A DNA stretch of 64,000 bases from Leptolyngbya sp. NIES-3755. Lineage in GTDB: Bacteria > Cyanobacteriota > Cyanobacteriia > Leptolyngbyales > Leptolyngbyaceae. Of this stretch, positions 13,563-19,306 are shown piece after piece. Every line of letters begins with the position of its first letter. Position 1 is the stretch's first letter. The notes beneath the pieces are model-generated. The model searched no databases, had not been told where the DNA came from, and saw nothing but the letters and a program-made list of their open reading frames with translations. The translations under genes were made by a program, and so were the position numbers. The DNA is taken from the NCBI GenBank assembly GCA_001548435.1, contig AP017308.1:1621030-1685029 (forward strand), read 5' to 3'.

Positions 13563-14117
13563 TTAAGTTCCGGGTTTCTTAGGTGCGATCGCAATACTCA
13601 ATTGGTAGTCTGAGGCTTGATCAGTTGCGATTACGTTGACTTGATAGGTTCCTGTTTCTGGAAGCGTTCCATTCCAACTCGATAAACCACTTTGGTAACG
13701 CTGGATTGGACTTCCACTTGGAGCAACTAAAGTGAGTAATACGCTTTGATTTGGGGATGTAATCGTGACGGTTGCAGTTTGATTGGCGGTGGCATCGAAG
13801 CTGTATTGGGCAGTTGCTTTGCTGGCTAAATTGCCTGAAACAGTGGTGGATGTTTTGCCAGGGTCGAGTTCGATTTTTTTACGATCGTCCGTTGTTTGGG
13901 GTGCGAGTGGTTGAGTCGTTTGAGGTGCAAGGGGTTGAGTTGTTTGAGGAGATTCCGCAGGCTGAGTTGGAGTTGCAACGGTTGGAGGGGGTGGCAATGG
14001 AGAAGGACTCGGTGTGGTTTCGGTTGGACTTGGAGCAACGGCTTGAGGGGGAGTAGATTGTCCGCAGCTTGTTAGGACTGCAACTGAACAAAGAATGAAA
14101 AGGGTAGTTCTGAGCAT
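13563..14117 (-). CDS. Lipoprotein with Pro/Thr-rich linker and PPC-like beta domain
   Basis: A 184-residue predicted lipoprotein with a perfect lipobox, LTSC at residues 15-18. A low-complexity Pro/Ser/Thr/Gln-rich segment follows (about 19-80), including a tandem QTTQPLAP repeat. The C-terminal 100 residues resemble a bacterial pre-peptidase C-terminal (PPC) beta-sandwich: ATAQYSFDATANQTATVTI, then VAPSGSPIQRY, then LPETGTYQVNVIA and a final YQLSIAI. PPC domains are secreted accessory or binding domains. It lies 26 bases downstream of the MprF-like gene on the same strand and could be its co-transcribed partner. Function unknown. Confidence 0.8.
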   Translation of the reverse strand: MLRTTLFILCSVAVLTSCGQSTPPQAVAPSPTETTPSPSPLPPPPTVATPTQPAESPQTTQPLAPQTTQPLAPQTTDDRKKIELDPGKTSTTVSGNLASKATAQYSFDATANQTATVTITSPNQSVLLTLVAPSGSPIQRYQSGLSSWNGTLPETGTYQVNVIATDQASDYQLSIAIAPKKPGT

Positions 14118-14143: not shown

Positions 14144-15877
14144 TTAGCTGTCAGGTCTGAGATAGTCGAGCAAGCGATCGCCTGAATCGGCTCGAACTAA
14201 TCCCACCGCAATTTCTGGTAAGACGGTGAAGCTTGGAAAGATTAAATATCGCGGTTCCCAACGGGGGCGGAACTTCTCTTTGAATTGATGTAACCCTTTG
14301 AAGTTGTAAAACTGGTTAAGATGCTCGAAGAAGTAATGTAATCCTTTTTCAACTCTAAGTGAATCTGGTGCTTCCCCGACTCCCGCTAAGGGTGATAAAG
14401 AGAAATTAAAACTGTCGTATCCAGCTTGCTGAAAGTGTTGGATCATGGTTGCGAAGAGGAAATCCATTGTTCCTTTTTCTGCATCGTTGAGGTGACGCAT
14501 CAGATCAACTGTGACTTCTTTGCGGTTGTAGCCAGAGAGGAGATTTGAGAAGGCGATGATTTTGCCGTTGGCATTGTAGACGACTGCGATATGGCAGCCG
14601 CTGAGATAATCTCGATCGAACCATCCGATCGAGAATTGTTTTTCTGATCCCTGCTTGGATTTTAGCCATTCATCGCTGACCGGCTTCAATTGATTAAGTA
14701 GTCCATCGTCGATCGGAGGTTCGTAGACTTGTAAGTGATAGCCTGCTTTTGTCAGTTTATTGATTGCAGTTCTAAAGTCTTGATTCGCTTTGCCTTTTAA
14801 GCTAAATGTGTGGAGATCAATAATGGCTTCTTCTCCAATTTGTGCCCAACGATAACCGATTGATTGATACAGCGGTAAGTTCTCCGGTAGGACTTCGTAG
14901 AATGCAGGAAACCAATCATTTTGATTGCAGAATTGTTGGAAAGACACGATCGCTTCTTTGAGGTCATCTGGATGTCCGATCGGATCACCTAATGCGATCG
15001 CGGCTCGACTTTTGGCAACATAGGCAACCACACTTTTGCCGGATGGACTGAAGAAGTACGACTTATCTGGAAGCAAAGACAATCGAGCGAGTGAAGTTTT
15101 GCCGTATTGGTCAATGATTTGGCGTGCTCTTTGTCGATCGCTTAAGGTTGCTGGATCTCGCAGCAATACTGGACGCAATAGCATGAAGAGCGCATACGTC
15201 AGAGTGATTGTACCGACCGCATAGATAGAGTTGGCAAAGAATTCGGCATAACGTCTTCTAGGTTCAAGTCCCGCGTTATCTGCGGTGAAGAACATTGCCA
15301 AAGTTTGTAACACTGATTCAGTAAAGCTGAAGTTTATGGGCTGCCCGTTGATATTAAAGTAGCCATCGAGAATGTAAAAGCCGATCGTGCCATACGCTAG
15401 GGTAAAAAAGATCGCTGCAATTAACACTCGAATGCCTTGGGCGATCGACGGTCGATCGGATTGTGCAGTGTAGGCTTTGCGTAATACAAATAATTGAATT
15501 AGTAGAACAGAGGCAAGAACACTTTCTTCAATGTCAAAGCCTTTGATTAAGTGACTTAGAATTGAAACAATTAACAATCCAACAGTGAGATACCAAGCAA
15601 CTCGTTTTCGACGTAAAAGATTCGCTGCGAGAGTTAGTAAGATAAATCCTGCTAAAGCAGCGAATAAGTGACCACCCACTCGCACTGAAAATGGGAAGAA
15701 ATGTTTTAACCAGGCAGTGCGTTCTGGATAACTCGGAGCAACCGCAGACCAGAGATTCACCAATCCCATGATCCCCGTTAAGATTGCGGTTAACCAGATC
15801 CCGATTCGAGTTTTACGATCGAGCATTTCGGGTCGTTTCCGATTCCAGCCGAATTTGGGAGAAGTTACCTTGTGCAT
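14144..15877 (-). CDS. MprF-like phosphatidylglycerol lysyltransferase domain protein (DUF2156)
   Basis: A 577-residue membrane enzyme. The N-terminal third has about six hydrophobic segments (residues about 25-240), and residues about 250-570 form the GNAT-like aminoacyl-lipid transferase domain. Motifs typical of the family are FSPSGKSVVAYVAKSRAAIA (about 273-292), ALGDPIG, WQIGEE-like WAQIGEEAIIDL, and the C-terminal FNFSLSPLAGVG and FKEKFRPRWEPRYL. MprF enzymes transfer an amino acid from tRNA to phosphatidylglycerol and so modify the surface charge of the membrane. The N-terminal flippase half of full MprF is shortened here. The substrate amino acid is not known. The ATG at 15877 follows AAGG. 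It lies 5 bases after an anchored esterase gene, which suggests coupled function. Confidence 0.87.
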   Translation of the reverse strand: MHKVTSPKFGWNRKRPEMLDRKTRIGIWLTAILTGIMGLVNLWSAVAPSYPERTAWLKHFFPFSVRVGGHLFAALAGFILLTLAANLLRRKRVAWYLTVGLLIVSILSHLIKGFDIEESVLASVLLIQLFVLRKAYTAQSDRPSIAQGIRVLIAAIFFTLAYGTIGFYILDGYFNINGQPINFSFTESVLQTLAMFFTADNAGLEPRRRYAEFFANSIYAVGTITLTYALFMLLRPVLLRDPATLSDRQRARQIIDQYGKTSLARLSLLPDKSYFFSPSGKSVVAYVAKSRAAIALGDPIGHPDDLKEAIVSFQQFCNQNDWFPAFYEVLPENLPLYQSIGYRWAQIGEEAIIDLHTFSLKGKANQDFRTAINKLTKAGYHLQVYEPPIDDGLLNQLKPVSDEWLKSKQGSEKQFSIGWFDRDYLSGCHIAVVYNANGKIIAFSNLLSGYNRKEVTVDLMRHLNDAEKGTMDFLFATMIQHFQQAGYDSFNFSLSPLAGVGEAPDSLRVEKGLHYFFEHLNQFYNFKGLHQFKEKFRPRWEPRYLIFPSFTVLPEIAVGLVRADSGDRLLDYLRPDS

Positions 15878-15882
15878 GAGCC

Positions 15883-16836
15883 TTAAAAGTGGCGATGTTT
15901 TTTCTGAGTTTGGGCGTGGTGAAATTGGCGACCTACAAAAGTCAGCGAATCAGCAAGGTGCGTTCTCCAATAGTTCCAACCCACATTTTGTCCGACAATT
16001 CCATGACCACCCGGAAATACATAGAATTCGTTATAGATTCCTAAGCTGCTCAATACTTTGTGGAAATCACGGGTGGCATCAAGGTATTTTTCGTCGGCTT
16101 CTCCAGCATCTAAATAAACTCGGATGCGTTTGCGCTCTTGAGGTGGGATTTGCGCGACAAAGAGTTGAGGACTGTTCTCAGGTCCGCTGTTATCGATGAA
16201 ATATCCGGTGTGACTAAAGAAAATGTTGAAGCGTTCTAAATGTCTTAATCCAATGTTGAACGCGCCCCAGCCACCCGAAGATAAACCACCCATTGCCCAG
16301 TAGTGAGAATCCTCGATCGTGCGAAATTGGCGCTTTACTTCTTTGACTAAATCCGAGCCGATGTAGGTTGAAACTTTGCCATTCTCGCCATCGAAATAGT
16401 CAGAATCCCAAAAAGGACTGGTTCCACGGTTGTCGTTGCCATCGGGTGTGATGATCAGGGCGGGTGGCAGTTTTTTCTCGTTATAGAGTCGTTTTAAGGT
16501 GGGGGTGATTGCGGCTTTTTCGTAGTAATCGCGTTCGTCTCCATGTCCACCATGTAGGAGGAAAATGACGGGGTAGCGTCGATTCGGATGCTTCTCATAT
16601 CCGGGGGGCAGAATTACGCCATATCGTCGCTGTTCATTCATGGCTTCGCTGTAGAAGCTTTTTACTTGAAAGTTCAGTCCTGCGACTTCTTCGACCGGCG
16701 GGGCATCGAGTTGGGGAGCACCGAGAACAAAAACATACCAATACGTCCCTGCCGCGATCGCACTCAGAACGATCGTGATCAAGGCTAAAACGGGCTTTCG
16801 ACGGAGTTTAAGTTTGGGTTTGGAGGTGAGTGGCAT
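15883..16836 (-). CDS. Membrane-anchored alpha/beta-hydrolase esterase (esterase D/Fes type)
   Basis: A 317-residue protein with one N-terminal membrane anchor (PVLALITIVLSAIAAGTYW, residues about 16-34) and an extracytoplasmic hydrolase domain. The oxyanion segment LLHGGHGDE lies near residue 93, the nucleophile motif GLSSGG near 185-190, an acidic LDAGEADEKY near 243, and the catalytic-His region FPGGHGI near 274. The family includes esterase D, antigen-85-like and enterochelin esterase-like enzymes. The gene is directly upstream of the MprF-like gene. In Pseudomonas and enterococci a comparable exported esterase beside an aminoacyl-PG synthase removes the amino acid again, so this enzyme may be an aminoacyl-lipid hydrolase. 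That role is inference. Confidence 0.85.
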   Translation of the reverse strand: MPLTSKPKLKLRRKPVLALITIVLSAIAAGTYWYVFVLGAPQLDAPPVEEVAGLNFQVKSFYSEAMNEQRRYGVILPPGYEKHPNRRYPVIFLLHGGHGDERDYYEKAAITPTLKRLYNEKKLPPALIITPDGNDNRGTSPFWDSDYFDGENGKVSTYIGSDLVKEVKRQFRTIEDSHYWAMGGLSSGGWGAFNIGLRHLERFNIFFSHTGYFIDNSGPENSPQLFVAQIPPQERKRIRVYLDAGEADEKYLDATRDFHKVLSSLGIYNEFYVFPGGHGIVGQNVGWNYWRTHLADSLTFVGRQFHHAQTQKKHRHF

Positions 16837-16979
16837 TGTATAAATTAAACAACCACTTTTTAACTACGGTTAATCAAAATCGAATTCCAAGGCAGTGCTT
16901 TAAATTGCTGTCGGTCAGGTGAAGGGCGAATCTTAGTGATTGCGTTATAACACACAGTAGCGTGATTGGAAGAAACAGA

Positions 16980-18347
16980 ATGTGTGCTGCAACTTATCGA
17001 GAACGAGCGGATGCGGGAATGGCAACACTTCAAACGTTTTACAATACTGCAACGGGATTGTGGAATACAACAGGCTGGTGGAATGGTGCGAACGTGTTGG
17101 AAACCACGATCGATTACTGTACCTTCACTGATTCGCTCACGTATCGAACGAATATTTTTAATACATTTGAGAAGAACAAACGTAACAATTTCTTAAATGA
17201 ATTTTACGACGATGAAGGATGGTGGGCACTGACTTGGATTAAAGCCTTTGATCTCACGGGTGAAAGTCGATACTTGGACATGTCGAAGATTATTTTTAAT
17301 GACATGACTAAAGGTTGGGATAACACTTGTGGCGGTGGGATTTGGTGGAATAAAGAACATAAGTATAAGAACGCGATCGCGAATGAGTTATTTTTAGCGA
17401 TCGCGGCTCGATTGTTTCTCAGAACCAGGGATCAACGCTATCTCGATTGGGCAAATCGAACCTGGAATTGGTTTCGTCGAACGGGAATGATCAATCAAAA
17501 TAATTTGATCAATGATGGCTTGAATGATCAGTGTAAGAATAACGGTCAACCGACTTGGACTTACAATCAGGGGGTAATTTTGGGAGCGCTAATTGATTTG
17601 TCGAAGTGTACAAATGATCGATCGCTGTTGAGCGTGGCACAATCGATCGCAGATGCAGCGACCAAATCTCTTGCTCCAAATGGCATACTACGTGAACCTT
17701 GTGAGCCGAATTGTGGATTGGATGGACCGCAATTCAAAGGGATCTTTATGCGAAACTTGTCGGATTTGTATCGGACTGTGAACAAGTTAGCGTATCGAGA
17801 TTTCATTCTTCGCAATGCGGATTCGATTTGGGAGCAATGTCGCAATCCGAAGAATCAATTTGGATTGTGTTGGGGACAGGATTTTGATGCTGCGGATGCG
17901 TCCCGTCAAAGTGCTGCGATGGATGCGTTAAATGCTTCGATTATTGCGAGTCGAACTCCGATCGTATTGCAAGCCGAAACTTCTACGCTTCATAGCTTAG
18001 TGTTAGAAGCGGTTTATACCGGATACGAAGGCTCAGGATACATTGCGGGATGGAATCGAGACGGGCAATGGGTTGATTTTAATTTCACTTTGCCGAATGC
18101 TGGACGGTTTGATTTGGTCATGCGATATGCAGCAGCGGCAGGAAACGCGACTCGATTTATCTTTGTGAATGGGAGAGCGATCGTCAATGCTCAGGTTTTC
18201 CCTGGAACCGGAAACTGGACAACTTGGAACACAACAACCATTCCAAATGTTTCATTAAAAGCGGGGAACAACACAGTTTCTATCATTTTTAATCAATCGA
18301 AAGGAAGTCGAAACTGGTTAAATCTCGATCAGCTTATAATTCGATGA
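16980..18347 (+). CDS. GH76-like alpha-mannanase with C-terminal carbohydrate-binding domain
   Basis: A 455-residue protein. Residues about 10-320 have the (alpha/alpha)6 pattern of glycoside hydrolase family 76: TGLWNTTGWWNGANVLETTID near the N-terminus, FYDDEGWWALTW with the adjacent aspartates at 77-78 expected to be catalytic, GGGIWWN, and YNQGVILGAL. Residues about 325-455 look like a CBM6/CBM35 module (IVLQAETSTLH, GSGYIAGWNRDGQWVDF, final LNLDQLIIR). GH76 enzymes cleave alpha-1,6-mannans. No signal peptide is visible from the ATG at 16980, which has a GGAAG ribosome-binding site, so its location is unclear. It overlaps the K+ channel gene by 4 bases. It is divergent from the esterase. 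Confidence 0.82.
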   Translation: MCAATYRERADAGMATLQTFYNTATGLWNTTGWWNGANVLETTIDYCTFTDSLTYRTNIFNTFEKNKRNNFLNEFYDDEGWWALTWIKAFDLTGESRYLDMSKIIFNDMTKGWDNTCGGGIWWNKEHKYKNAIANELFLAIAARLFLRTRDQRYLDWANRTWNWFRRTGMINQNNLINDGLNDQCKNNGQPTWTYNQGVILGALIDLSKCTNDRSLLSVAQSIADAATKSLAPNGILREPCEPNCGLDGPQFKGIFMRNLSDLYRTVNKLAYRDFILRNADSIWEQCRNPKNQFGLCWGQDFDAADASRQSAAMDALNASIIASRTPIVLQAETSTLHSLVLEAVYTGYEGSGYIAGWNRDGQWVDFNFTLPNAGRFDLVMRYAAAAGNATRFIFVNGRAIVNAQVFPGTGNWTTWNTTTIPNVSLKAGNNTVSIIFNQSKGSRNWLNLDQLIIR

Positions 18348-19306
18348 TCGGATTCATTCGACTTTGCATGAAACTTCGATCGTTCCATGAGGGTAGACCC
18401 TTGAGACTTAAAAATCTACTGCTTAGAAATCGTAAACATCGCCGCATCAAAATTCACGTCGAAGAAAGTGGGCGTTTCCAAATTGTCGGAATGAATGCTT
18501 GGTATTCCTACTGGCGTGATCCCTACCATTTGGTGCTGACTGTTCCTTGGCAGGGATTTTTTGCGATCGTGGTCGGGGCTTACCTGGGGATCAATGTCGT
18601 CTTTGCTTGGATTTATCTACTCGGTGGAGACTGCATTGCGAATGCCACACCCGGATCGTTTTTAGACTACTTCTTTTTCAGCATTCAAACCTTTGCGACG
18701 ATCGGATATGGGGCAATGTATCCGAAAACGGTTTATGCTCAGTCGATTATGACGATCGAATCGTTGGTTTCAATGGTTGCGATCGCAATTCTGACTGGGC
18801 TAACGTTTGCTCGATTTTCGCGTCCAACGGCTCGTGTCACATTTAGTCAAGTTGCGACGATCGCATCCCATGAAGGAGTTCCAACACTTAGTTTTCGGGC
18901 TGCAAATCAACGTCGAAATCAGATTTTAGAAGCTCAAATGCGAGTGTATTTAATTCGAGATGAAATCACTTCAGAAGGACGTTACATTCGTCGGATTCAT
19001 GATTTGGCATTAGTTCGGAGTCAAACTCCAGGATTTGCGCTGACTTGGTTGGTCATGCACCCGATCGATGAAAATAGTCCGCTTTATGGCATGACTCCAG
19101 AATCAATGTCTGAAACGAATTGTCTGATTCAGGTGATGCTAAGCGGCATTGATGAAACCGTGTCTCAAGTACTGCACGATCGACATGTTTATGTGCCACA
19201 AGAGATTTTATGGAATTATCGCTTTGTCGATCTGGTGTACAAAACGCCTGAAGGGCATCGGTTTATTGATTATCAGCATTTTCATGATGCAGAGCCGATT
19301 CCGTAG
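18344..19306 (+). CDS. Inward-rectifier-type potassium channel (KirBac family)
   Basis: A 320-residue channel subunit. It has two transmembrane helices (about 69-98 and 131-160) flanking a pore loop whose selectivity filter, TIGYG, lies at residues 119-123. The outer helix is preceded by the amphipathic slide helix containing WYSYWRDPYHLVLTVPW. The C-terminal half is the cytoplasmic immunoglobulin-like Kir domain (FRAANQRRNQILEAQMRVYL, LTWLVMHPIDENSPLYG). Prokaryotic Kir channels are tetramers gated by lipids and pH. The ATG overlaps the stop of the glycosidase gene (ATGA), so the two are translated together, an unusual partnership. Confidence 0.93.
   Translation: MIGFIRLCMKLRSFHEGRPLRLKNLLLRNRKHRRIKIHVEESGRFQIVGMNAWYSYWRDPYHLVLTVPWQGFFAIVVGAYLGINVVFAWIYLLGGDCIANATPGSFLDYFFFSIQTFATIGYGAMYPKTVYAQSIMTIESLVSMVAIAILTGLTFARFSRPTARVTFSQVATIASHEGVPTLSFRAANQRRNQILEAQMRVYLIRDEITSEGRYIRRIHDLALVRSQTPGFALTWLVMHPIDENSPLYGMTPESMSETNCLIQVMLSGIDETVSQVLHDRHVYVPQEILWNYRFVDLVYKTPEGHRFIDYQHFHDAEPIP

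What the first reader, a model, noticed from the sequence alone, without database searches (positions are those of the whole stretch)
14144..16836. MprF-like synthase paired with an exported esterase: possible lipid aminoacylation/deacylation switch
The esterase gene ends 5 bases before the MprF-like gene starts. In Pseudomonas (PA0919/PA0920) and enterococci an exported esterase next to an aminoacyl-PG synthase hydrolyses the modified lipid. The same pairing here suggests reversible modification of phosphatidylglycerol, the key thylakoid phospholipid, in a cyanobacterium.
Basis: partly seen in the sequence, partly recalled or inferred. Interest (0 to 1): 0.55.

Follow-up and report, generated by a model that had tools for sequence, protein, structure and literature searches.

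The report
Cyanobacterial lipid aminoacyl-synthase and esterase pair
Two neighbouring genes in a cyanobacterium appear to form a conserved unit that attaches an amino acid to a membrane lipid and then acts on that modified lipid from the other side of the membrane, a chemistry the papers we could search do not describe in cyanobacteria.

Summary
A 317-aa PF00756 esterase with one predicted membrane anchor (15883-16836, minus) ends 5 nt before a 577-aa synthase (14144-15877, minus) with six TM helices and the lipid-aminoacylating domain PF09924. The pairing is not chance: of 145 cyanobacterial genomes, 17 carry the esterase ortholog; all 17 carry the synthase within about 630 nt, and none of 117 genomes without a synthase match has it. 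Esterase, synthase and flippase genes lie together on plasmids of Chroococcidiopsis and the actinobacterium Rubrobacter.

The esterase is not in the VirJ/AcvB family that contains PA0919, but an analogous role is plausible: in 80 synthase loci the esterase occurs in 24 of 36 cyanobacterial and 0 of 44 other loci, VirJ-like hydrolases in 0 of 36 and 15 of 44. The synthase lacks MprF's flippase core. Corynebacterium PesT-AlaDAGS, where the esterase is needed to MAKE Ala-PG (recalled), leaves transfer instead of hydrolysis open. Lipid, amino acid and reversibility are untested. The thylakoid link is unsupported: the pair is patchy, and a divergent form occurs in a genome whose length equals that of thylakoid-less Gloeobacter kilaueensis.

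The parts
15883..16836 (-). E1 esterase gene (317 aa, PF00756 alpha/beta hydrolase), first gene of the pair
   Evidence: predicted fold best matches feruloyl/CE1 esterases, VIA Z 22.5 to 5vol
16726..16782 (-). single N-terminal membrane anchor of the esterase (residues 19-37) after a basic N-terminus; catalytic domain predicted outside the cytoplasm
   Evidence: hydropathy; a similar stretch (YWYVF..GAPQLDPP) is seen at the start of most E1 relatives (by eye)
16279..16281 (-). catalytic Ser186 codon (G-L-S-S-G)
   Evidence: invariant in 22-row and 27-row alignments
16093..16095 (-). Asp248 codon, probable triad Asp (assignment inferred)
   Evidence: invariant
16003..16005 (-). catalytic His278 codon (PGGH; assignment inferred)
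   Evidence: invariant
15878..15882 (-). 5-nt intergenic gap; same-strand, operon-like spacing
   Evidence: gaps from -122 to 296 nt in 31 of 33 paired loci, taking the longest ORFs
14144..15877 (-). stand-alone aminoacyl-lipid synthase gene (577 aa)
   Evidence: PF09924 295.7 bits; NF033480 only positions 319-840; model pLDDT 82.5 matches MprF structures
15161..15805 (-). six-TM region (residues 25-239), equivalent to MprF Subdomain 2; Subdomain 1 (flippase core) absent
   Evidence: subdomain boundaries from PMC8131360 passages
14240..15124 (-). cytoplasmic tandem-GNAT synthase domain (residues 252-546)
   Evidence: PF09924 match; PDB 4v36, 4v34 and 5vrv matched
13563..14117 (-). downstream same-strand lipoprotein-like ORF with a sub-threshold PPC match, 26 nt after the synthase; possible operon passenger, no relative found in the other loci searched
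   Evidence: blastp of 114 loci, 0 matches at 1e-10

Best explanation
The pair is a two-gene lipid-aminoacylation module. The synthase takes an amino acid from an aminoacyl-tRNA in the cytoplasm and esterifies it to a membrane lipid, most simply phosphatidylglycerol. It keeps MprF's membrane docking part (Subdomain 2) and catalytic part but not the flippase core, so the product reaches the outer leaflet by a separate flippase or scramblase. The anchored esterase faces the periplasm or thylakoid lumen and attacks the aminoacyl ester with Ser186, releasing free amino acid and the original lipid, which sets the steady-state level of the modified lipid. Shown: gene structure, domain content, conservation and co-occurrence. 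Inferred: catalytic competence, the lipid, the amino acid, the leaflet crossing, and hydrolysis as the outcome.
For: Domain and fold of known lipid aminoacyl-transferases. The region kept matches the SaMprF 328-840 construct, which needs separately expressed Subdomain 1 for Lys-PG translocation (PMC8131360 passages). Esterase and synthase co-occur in 17 of 17 genomes with the esterase ortholog, and 0 of 117 genomes without a synthase match have it; within the window's family 10 of 13 genomes have both and 3 have neither ortholog. The esterase is upstream on the same strand in 16 of these 17 and downstream in one. The triad is invariant and the closest folds are esterases. Complementary distribution: 24/36 cyanobacterial loci have this esterase and 0/36 a VirJ-like hydrolase; 0/44 and 15/44 in the other loci; in an acidobacterium the order is synthase, VirJ-family hydrolase, flippase. 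PF06057 is found in 0 of 145 cyanobacterial genomes, with 4 of 4 positives in a separate control. Pairwise distances of the two proteins correlate, r 0.92 over 33 loci, though shared species ancestry alone can give this.
Against: No lipid or enzyme data. The window genome has no clear dedicated flippase: only one PF03706 hit, 24.9 bits, below the cut-off of 33.4. The esterase lies upstream of the synthase, whereas the VirJ-like hydrolases seen here mostly lie downstream. The VirJ-like count rests on a model from four sequences; Pfam confirmed PF06057 in three loci but the one ORF tested in L175 gave no PF06057 match and the rest were not tested. The recalled Corynebacterium PesT precedent points to promotion of Ala-PG formation. 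Stand-alone synthases lack this esterase in the locus in 6 of 30 intact cyanobacterial loci; four of those genomes have none anywhere, nor do G011 and G031, so the esterase is not obligatory.
Confidence: 0.5

Rival explanations
1. Relay model: the synthase first aminoacylates another lipid (for example diacylglycerol or a glycolipid) and the exported esterase works as a transferase, moving the aminoacyl group through the Ser186 acyl-enzyme onto PG in the outer leaflet. The esterase would then complete the modification, not erase it.
For: The Corynebacterium pseudotuberculosis AlaDAGS homologue has six predicted TM helices plus GNAT, and a pesT gene is tied to Ala-DAG/Ala-PG synthesis in C. glutamicum (PMC10580965 passages); the authors propose a transferase step from aminoacyl-DAG to PG. 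That pesT lies upstream and encodes a putative esterase is recalled. A Streptomyces plasmid has a PF00756 protein 120 nt upstream of a PF16995+PF09924 synthase, and it aligns with this family over 220 columns at 98% probability. Antigen 85 mycolyltransferases share the fold (Z 16.1-16.4).
Against: Closest folds are hydrolases (Z 22.5). Elsewhere the accompanying proteins are VirJ-like, and the studied VirJ-family member AcvB is a hydrolase. PesT itself could not be fetched. The Streptomyces partner is no closer to this family (49.1 bits) than esterases without a synthase beside them (40-124 bits in six actinobacterial plasmid loci, none with a synthase). Of five actinobacterial synthase loci examined one has such an esterase.
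Confidence: 0.24
2. The two genes are merely co-transcribed envelope genes; the esterase acts on an unrelated substrate such as cell-wall or exopolysaccharide esters, as feruloyl and acetyl-xylan esterases of the same fold do.
For: Best sequence and structure matches are carbohydrate esterases. A glycoside hydrolase family 76 gene is divergent from the pair in the window and also in the same-genus genome. Second-copy (E2) esterases occur without a synthase beside them, including one in the window genome.
Against: Strict co-occurrence and joint absence with the synthase, the esterase-synthase-flippase order in a different phylum, and complementary distribution with VirJ-like hydrolases. Among 114 loci searched, the glycoside hydrolase was found only in the same-genus one.
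Confidence: 0.15
3. The synthase does not modify a bulk membrane lipid but a minor acceptor (small molecule or secondary metabolite), with the esterase trimming that product.
For: A related enzyme acts outside lipid metabolism (VlmA, passages of PMC2922099); one cyanobacterium has a distant PF09924-like stretch inside a 2152-aa protein.
Against: The six-TM docking part shared with MprF; flippase-family genes beside or fused to the synthase in several lineages.
Confidence: 0.07

Closest known systems
LpiA-AcvB (Agrobacterium, Rhizobium) and PA0920-PA0919 (Pseudomonas): MprF plus periplasmic aminoacyl-PG hydrolase
   Same: A PF09924 synthase with an adjacent same-strand gene for an extracytoplasmic alpha/beta hydrolase; Ser nucleophile (AcvB Ser336, PMC13197417 passages).
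   Different: Hydrolase is VirJ family (PF06057), no detectable profile similarity to this esterase (hhalign probability 0.1); in a Rhizobium plasmid it is downstream, not upstream, and the synthase there is annotated as bifunctional flippase/synthetase.
PesT-AlaDAGS of Corynebacterium glutamicum
   Same: AlaDAGS of C. pseudotuberculosis has six TM plus GNAT. That pesT is an upstream putative esterase gene is recalled from Smith et al. 2015 (not held).
   Different: Recalled role: needed with AlaDAGS for Ala-PG formation. No direct sequence comparison was possible; a Streptomyces proxy shows family-level similarity only.
RakPGS-AhyD of Enterococcus faecium
   Same: Synthase with a hydrolase that cleaves aminoacyl-PG (title seen in a reference list; adjacency recalled).
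   Different: AhyD sequence and family not available here; not compared.
MprF of Rhizobium tropici, R. etli and Pseudomonas (PDB 7duw, 7f47, 9goe)
   Same: Foldseek aligns the model over 541-555 columns (TM-score by query length 0.43-0.51, so domain arrangement differs).
   Different: Lacks Subdomain 1; below the NCBI equivalog cut-off for bifunctional MprF.

Membership tests
Bifunctional MprF | PF09924 synthase domain | tested here: met
   295.7 bits, cut-off 27.5
Bifunctional MprF | six TM helices of Subdomain 2 before the synthase domain | tested here: met
   hydropathy; model helices
Bifunctional MprF | N-terminal flippase core (Subdomain 1, PF03706) | tested here: not met
   no PF03706 in the protein; NF033480 match starts at profile position 319 and misses the cut-off, 507.9 < 600
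Bifunctional MprF | makes aminoacyl-PG | not testable with these tools
   needs lipidomics or enzyme assay
AcvB/VirJ aminoacyl-PG hydrolases | PF06057 domain and AcvB-type sequence | tested here: not met
   esterase hits PF00756 only; hhalign of its alignment to a Rhizobium VirJ-family protein, probability 0.1
AcvB/VirJ aminoacyl-PG hydrolases | gene adjacent to an aminoacyl-PG-type synthase | tested here: met
AcvB/VirJ aminoacyl-PG hydrolases | hydrolysis of Lys-PG or Ala-PG | not testable with these tools
   needs assay
PF00756 esterase superfamily | GxSxG nucleophile with Asp and His in an alpha/beta hydrolase fold | tested here: met
   Ser186, Asp248, His278 invariant; fold Z 22.5 to 5vol
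PesT-AlaDAGS type | six-TM synthase without flippase core | tested here: met
   comparison feature from PMC10580965 passages
PesT-AlaDAGS type | esterase orthologous to PesT | not tested
PesT-AlaDAGS type | esterase needed for aminoacyl-PG formation | not testable with these tools
   needs mutants; the defining role itself is recalled

The most novel reading that the evidence does not exclude
Cyanobacteria make an unreported aminoacylated membrane lipid controlled by a writer without a flippase core and two tethered extracytoplasmic esterases: a TM-anchored E1 and a lipoprotein-like E2 that sits in tandem upstream of E1 in ten Nostoc-type loci. E1 and E2 would do different jobs (for example transfer to a second lipid and hydrolysis), making a three-enzyme relay that tunes membrane charge outside the cytoplasm.
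Probability: 0.2. Interest if true: 0.72.

Novelty: new variant of a known kind. Interest (0 to 1): 0.5.

Why it matters
Cyanobacterial membranes are usually described as three or four glycolipids plus PG as the only phospholipid (general knowledge). A conserved writer-esterase module implies a further, amino-acid-bearing lipid whose charge could be adjusted, relevant to stress tolerance, resistance to cationic peptides and perhaps to PG-dependent protein complexes. It also gives a comparative case in which two hydrolase families without detectable sequence similarity appear beside one kind of lipid synthase, and a direct test of whether PF00756 partners erase or relay the aminoacyl group.

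Tried and rejected
Homology of the esterase to VirJ/AcvB: tested and rejected at sequence level. Hidden esterase in the long cyanobacterial synthases (877-906 aa): rejected, the extra C-terminal part matches PF03706 in the one scanned with Pfam and an in-house flippase model in the others. A dedicated flippase in the window genome: only a sub-threshold hit. 'Fused forms lack the esterase': holds for the neighbourhood (0 of 5 fused loci) and for genomes G012, G043, G060 and those of L151 and L156, but L163's genome (Lyngbya confervoides) has an ortholog elsewhere (350.8 bits); L160 was not held and L158 was not asked. PF00756-synthase pairs as a general actinobacterial plasmid feature: not supported; 0 of 6 loci found by esterase search have a synthase and 1 of 5 found by synthase search has the esterase, besides Rubrobacter. 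A shared glycoside hydrolase neighbour: found in one other locus only, of the same genus. Amino acid or lipid specificity from sequence: no usable rule taken from PMC11630815 (passages). An acidic pocket like AcvB's: Asp132, Asp135 and Asp144 are conserved in at least 90% of rows, but that loop is low confidence in the model, so not claimed. Literature: searches pairing cyanobacteria with lysyl-PG, MprF, aminoacylated lipids or thylakoid listed nothing on point; only listings were seen except passages of PMC9950537 and PMC2922099. Neighbours of four E2 copies were read by eye without a clear lead. No AcvB or VirJ structure appears among the rows shown, which is no evidence of a different fold.
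Full report
WHAT IS THERE. On the minus strand of the window a 317-aa ORF (16836..15883) ends 5 bases before a 577-aa ORF (15877..14144). The first is a PF00756 esterase (70.9 bits) and the second carries PF09924, the lysyl-PG synthase domain (295.7 bits). A lipoprotein-like ORF starts 26 nt after the synthase on the same strand, followed by a pentapeptide-repeat protein.

HOST. The window lies in a 6.76-Mb genome with one PF09924 match. Two genomes of the same family, G073 and G034, have contigs of the same lengths (12,967 and 81,412 bases) as contigs titled Pantanalinema sp. and Myxacorys californica, so the host is a Leptolyngbya-like cyanobacterium. The species was not determined.

THE SYNTHASE. 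It matches only positions 319-840 of the 841-position bifunctional-MprF model and stays below that model's cut-off (507.9 against 600). Hydropathy shows six helices before the catalytic domain (a further weak peak lies near the C-terminus). In the solved R. tropici MprF, Subdomain 1 forms most of the lipid-translocating cavities and Subdomain 2 (TM9-14) leads into the synthase domain; the SaMprF construct with Subdomain 2 plus synthase needs separately expressed Subdomain 1 for lipid translocation (passages of PMC8131360). The window protein corresponds to Subdomain 2 plus synthase. Its model (mean pLDDT 82.5) aligns with full MprF structures over 541-555 columns, with low TM-scores by query length (0.43-0.51), and with isolated synthase domains at target-normalised TM-scores of 0.83-0.88. 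D458, M460, R461, K533, K535, W540 and R543 are invariant or at least 90% conserved in alignments of 23 and 28 rows; their catalytic role is recalled, not tested.

THE ESTERASE. Ser186, Asp248 and His278 are invariant in alignments of 22 and 27 rows. The model (mean pLDDT 73.8) is closest to ferulic acid esterase 5vol (Z 22.5, rmsd 2.8 over 239 residues), with antigen 85 lower (Z 16.1-16.4). A basic N-terminus and one hydrophobic segment predict an anchored enzyme facing away from the cytoplasm. The esterase tree has two main groups. E1, which includes the window protein, has TM-anchor-like starts by eye and lies by the synthase. E2 has a lipobox-like pattern in 12 of 16 members and lies in tandem upstream of E1 in ten loci, alone beside the synthase in two (L152, L154), or away from any synthase in four (L093-L096); the window genome has one such copy away from the synthase.

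CONSERVATION. In 145 genomes of the class, 28 have a synthase match at E <= 0.001 and 17 have an esterase ortholog above 300 bits; all 17 are among the 28, and none of the other 117 genomes has one (hypergeometric 3.7e-15 without correction for relatedness). The esterase query matched 27 genomes in all: the 17, one remnant (G020, 108 bits) and nine weak matches at or below 40 bits in genomes without a synthase match. In 16 of the 17 the esterase is upstream on the same strand, in one case (G080) with a DUF1003 gene between; in G047 it is downstream. The other 11 synthase genomes are: two stand-alone without esterase (G011, G031), three fused to a flippase (G012, G043, G060), one broken with an esterase remnant on another contig (G020), one with most of the synthase domain missing (G045), two with fragments and stops (G032, G071), one GNAT-only (G061) and one inside a 2152-aa protein (G094). 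Within the window's family 10 of 13 genomes have both genes; G048, G105 and G122 have no synthase and no esterase ortholog, the last two only 23-25% identical esterase matches.

A WIDER LOOK. Of those, 6 were set aside as fused or broken (L151, L156, L158, L160, L163, L179). Of the remaining 30, 23 have the esterase within 300 nt upstream, L136 has it about 3.1 kb upstream, and 6 have none in the locus (L135, L153, L157, L159, L161, L162). Of those 6 genomes, 2 have an ortholog elsewhere and 4 do not. In the same 80 loci the esterase is present on the synthase strand in 24 of 36 cyanobacterial and 0 of 44 other loci, and VirJ-like hydrolases in 0 of 36 and 15 of 44. The VirJ model was built from four sequences, three of them from these loci. 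Pfam found PF06057 in L176 and at the matching places in the genomes of L176, L178 and L183; the one ORF tested in L175 gave only a sub-threshold match to another family, and the remaining loci, several at 50-70 bits, were not tested. PF06057 was found in 0 of 145 cyanobacterial genomes; that search's 14 control genomes gave no positive, so a separate control was run and found it in 4 of 4.

THE FLIPPASE. A PF03706-type gene follows the pair in G053, G138 and G080, in Chroococcidiopsis thermalis on a plasmid typed conjugative, with a small ORF between, and in Rubrobacter radiotolerans on a plasmid. It lies in 10 of the 24 cyanobacterial esterase loci, divergent in nine. In seven cyanobacterial proteins it is fused behind the synthase, the reverse of the usual MprF order. 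In the window genome only a sub-threshold hit exists (24.9 bits, cut-off 33.4). How the product crosses the membrane is therefore unknown.

HOW IT MOST LIKELY WORKS. Writer in the cytoplasm, esterase outside. Two outcomes fit. Hydrolysis is favoured by the complementary distribution with VirJ-like proteins, of which AcvB is an established Lys-PG hydrolase and PA0919 a listed homologue (PMC13197417 passages), and by the fold. Transfer is favoured by Corynebacterium: a strain without pesT and alaDAGS lacks Ala-DAG and Ala-PG synthesis, the C. pseudotuberculosis AlaDAGS has six TM plus GNAT, and a transferase step from aminoacyl-DAG to PG has been proposed (PMC10580965 passages). The abstract of Smith et al. 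2015, as I recall it, says Ala-PG formation needs the upstream putative esterase; that paper was not held. A Streptomyces plasmid shows the same order with a PF00756 protein, but this protein scores 49.1 bits against the family model, no better than actinobacterial esterases without a synthase beside them (40-124 bits). I put hydrolysis at about 0.5 and transfer at about 0.24.

The esterase is not a VirJ/AcvB-family protein by sequence. Nothing shows reversibility. PG is assumed. The thylakoid argument is weak: the system is patchy, and a divergent form (GNAT-only synthase followed by the esterase) occurs in G047, whose contig of 4,724,791 bases equals the published length of Gloeobacter kilaueensis JS1, which lacks thylakoids.

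NOVELTY. Searches pairing cyanobacteria with lysyl-PG, MprF, aminoacylated lipids or thylakoid listed no paper on such a system in cyanobacteria. The library holds only open-licence papers, so this is not proof of absence. I file it as a new variant of a known kind.

Noticed in passing
L083:7328-10048, L084:8750-11395, L085:7531-10188, L151, L156, L160, L163: Cyanobacterial synthases of 877-906 aa with a PF03706-type flippase fused at the C-terminus, the reverse of the usual MprF domain order.
   Followed up: partly
L131 (Chroococcidiopsis thermalis pCHRO.01) and L130 (Rubrobacter radiotolerans plasmid): Esterase, synthase and flippase genes lie together on plasmids in two phyla, one typed conjugative, with transporter genes nearby, suggesting horizontal transfer.
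   Followed up: partly
L176:5974-9472: An acidobacterial run of synthase, VirJ-family hydrolase and flippase as three overlapping or adjacent genes.
   Followed up: partly
L139, L141, L144-L146, L148, L149, L155, L187, L204: Tandem E2 and E1 esterases upstream of the synthase, in eight of these ten loci with a divergent flippase-like gene.
   Followed up: partly
L086 and L087 (G011, G031): Compact 2.7-2.8-Mb genomes with a stand-alone synthase (48% identity) and no esterase match; G031's 2,696,255-base contig matches, from memory only, Synechococcus elongatus PCC 6301.
   Followed up: no
L092:5783-12241: A distant PF09924-like stretch inside a 2152-aa protein flanked by other long ORFs, possibly a secondary-metabolite cluster.
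   Followed up: no
window 18344-19306: A prokaryotic inward-rectifier potassium channel (PF17655 IRK_C 109.8 bits), with a relative beside the pair in the same-genus genome.
   Followed up: no
window 16962-18347: A GH76 family protein with a CBM35/CBM6 module, divergent from the esterase; conserved at this place only in the same-genus genome among loci searched.
   Followed up: partly
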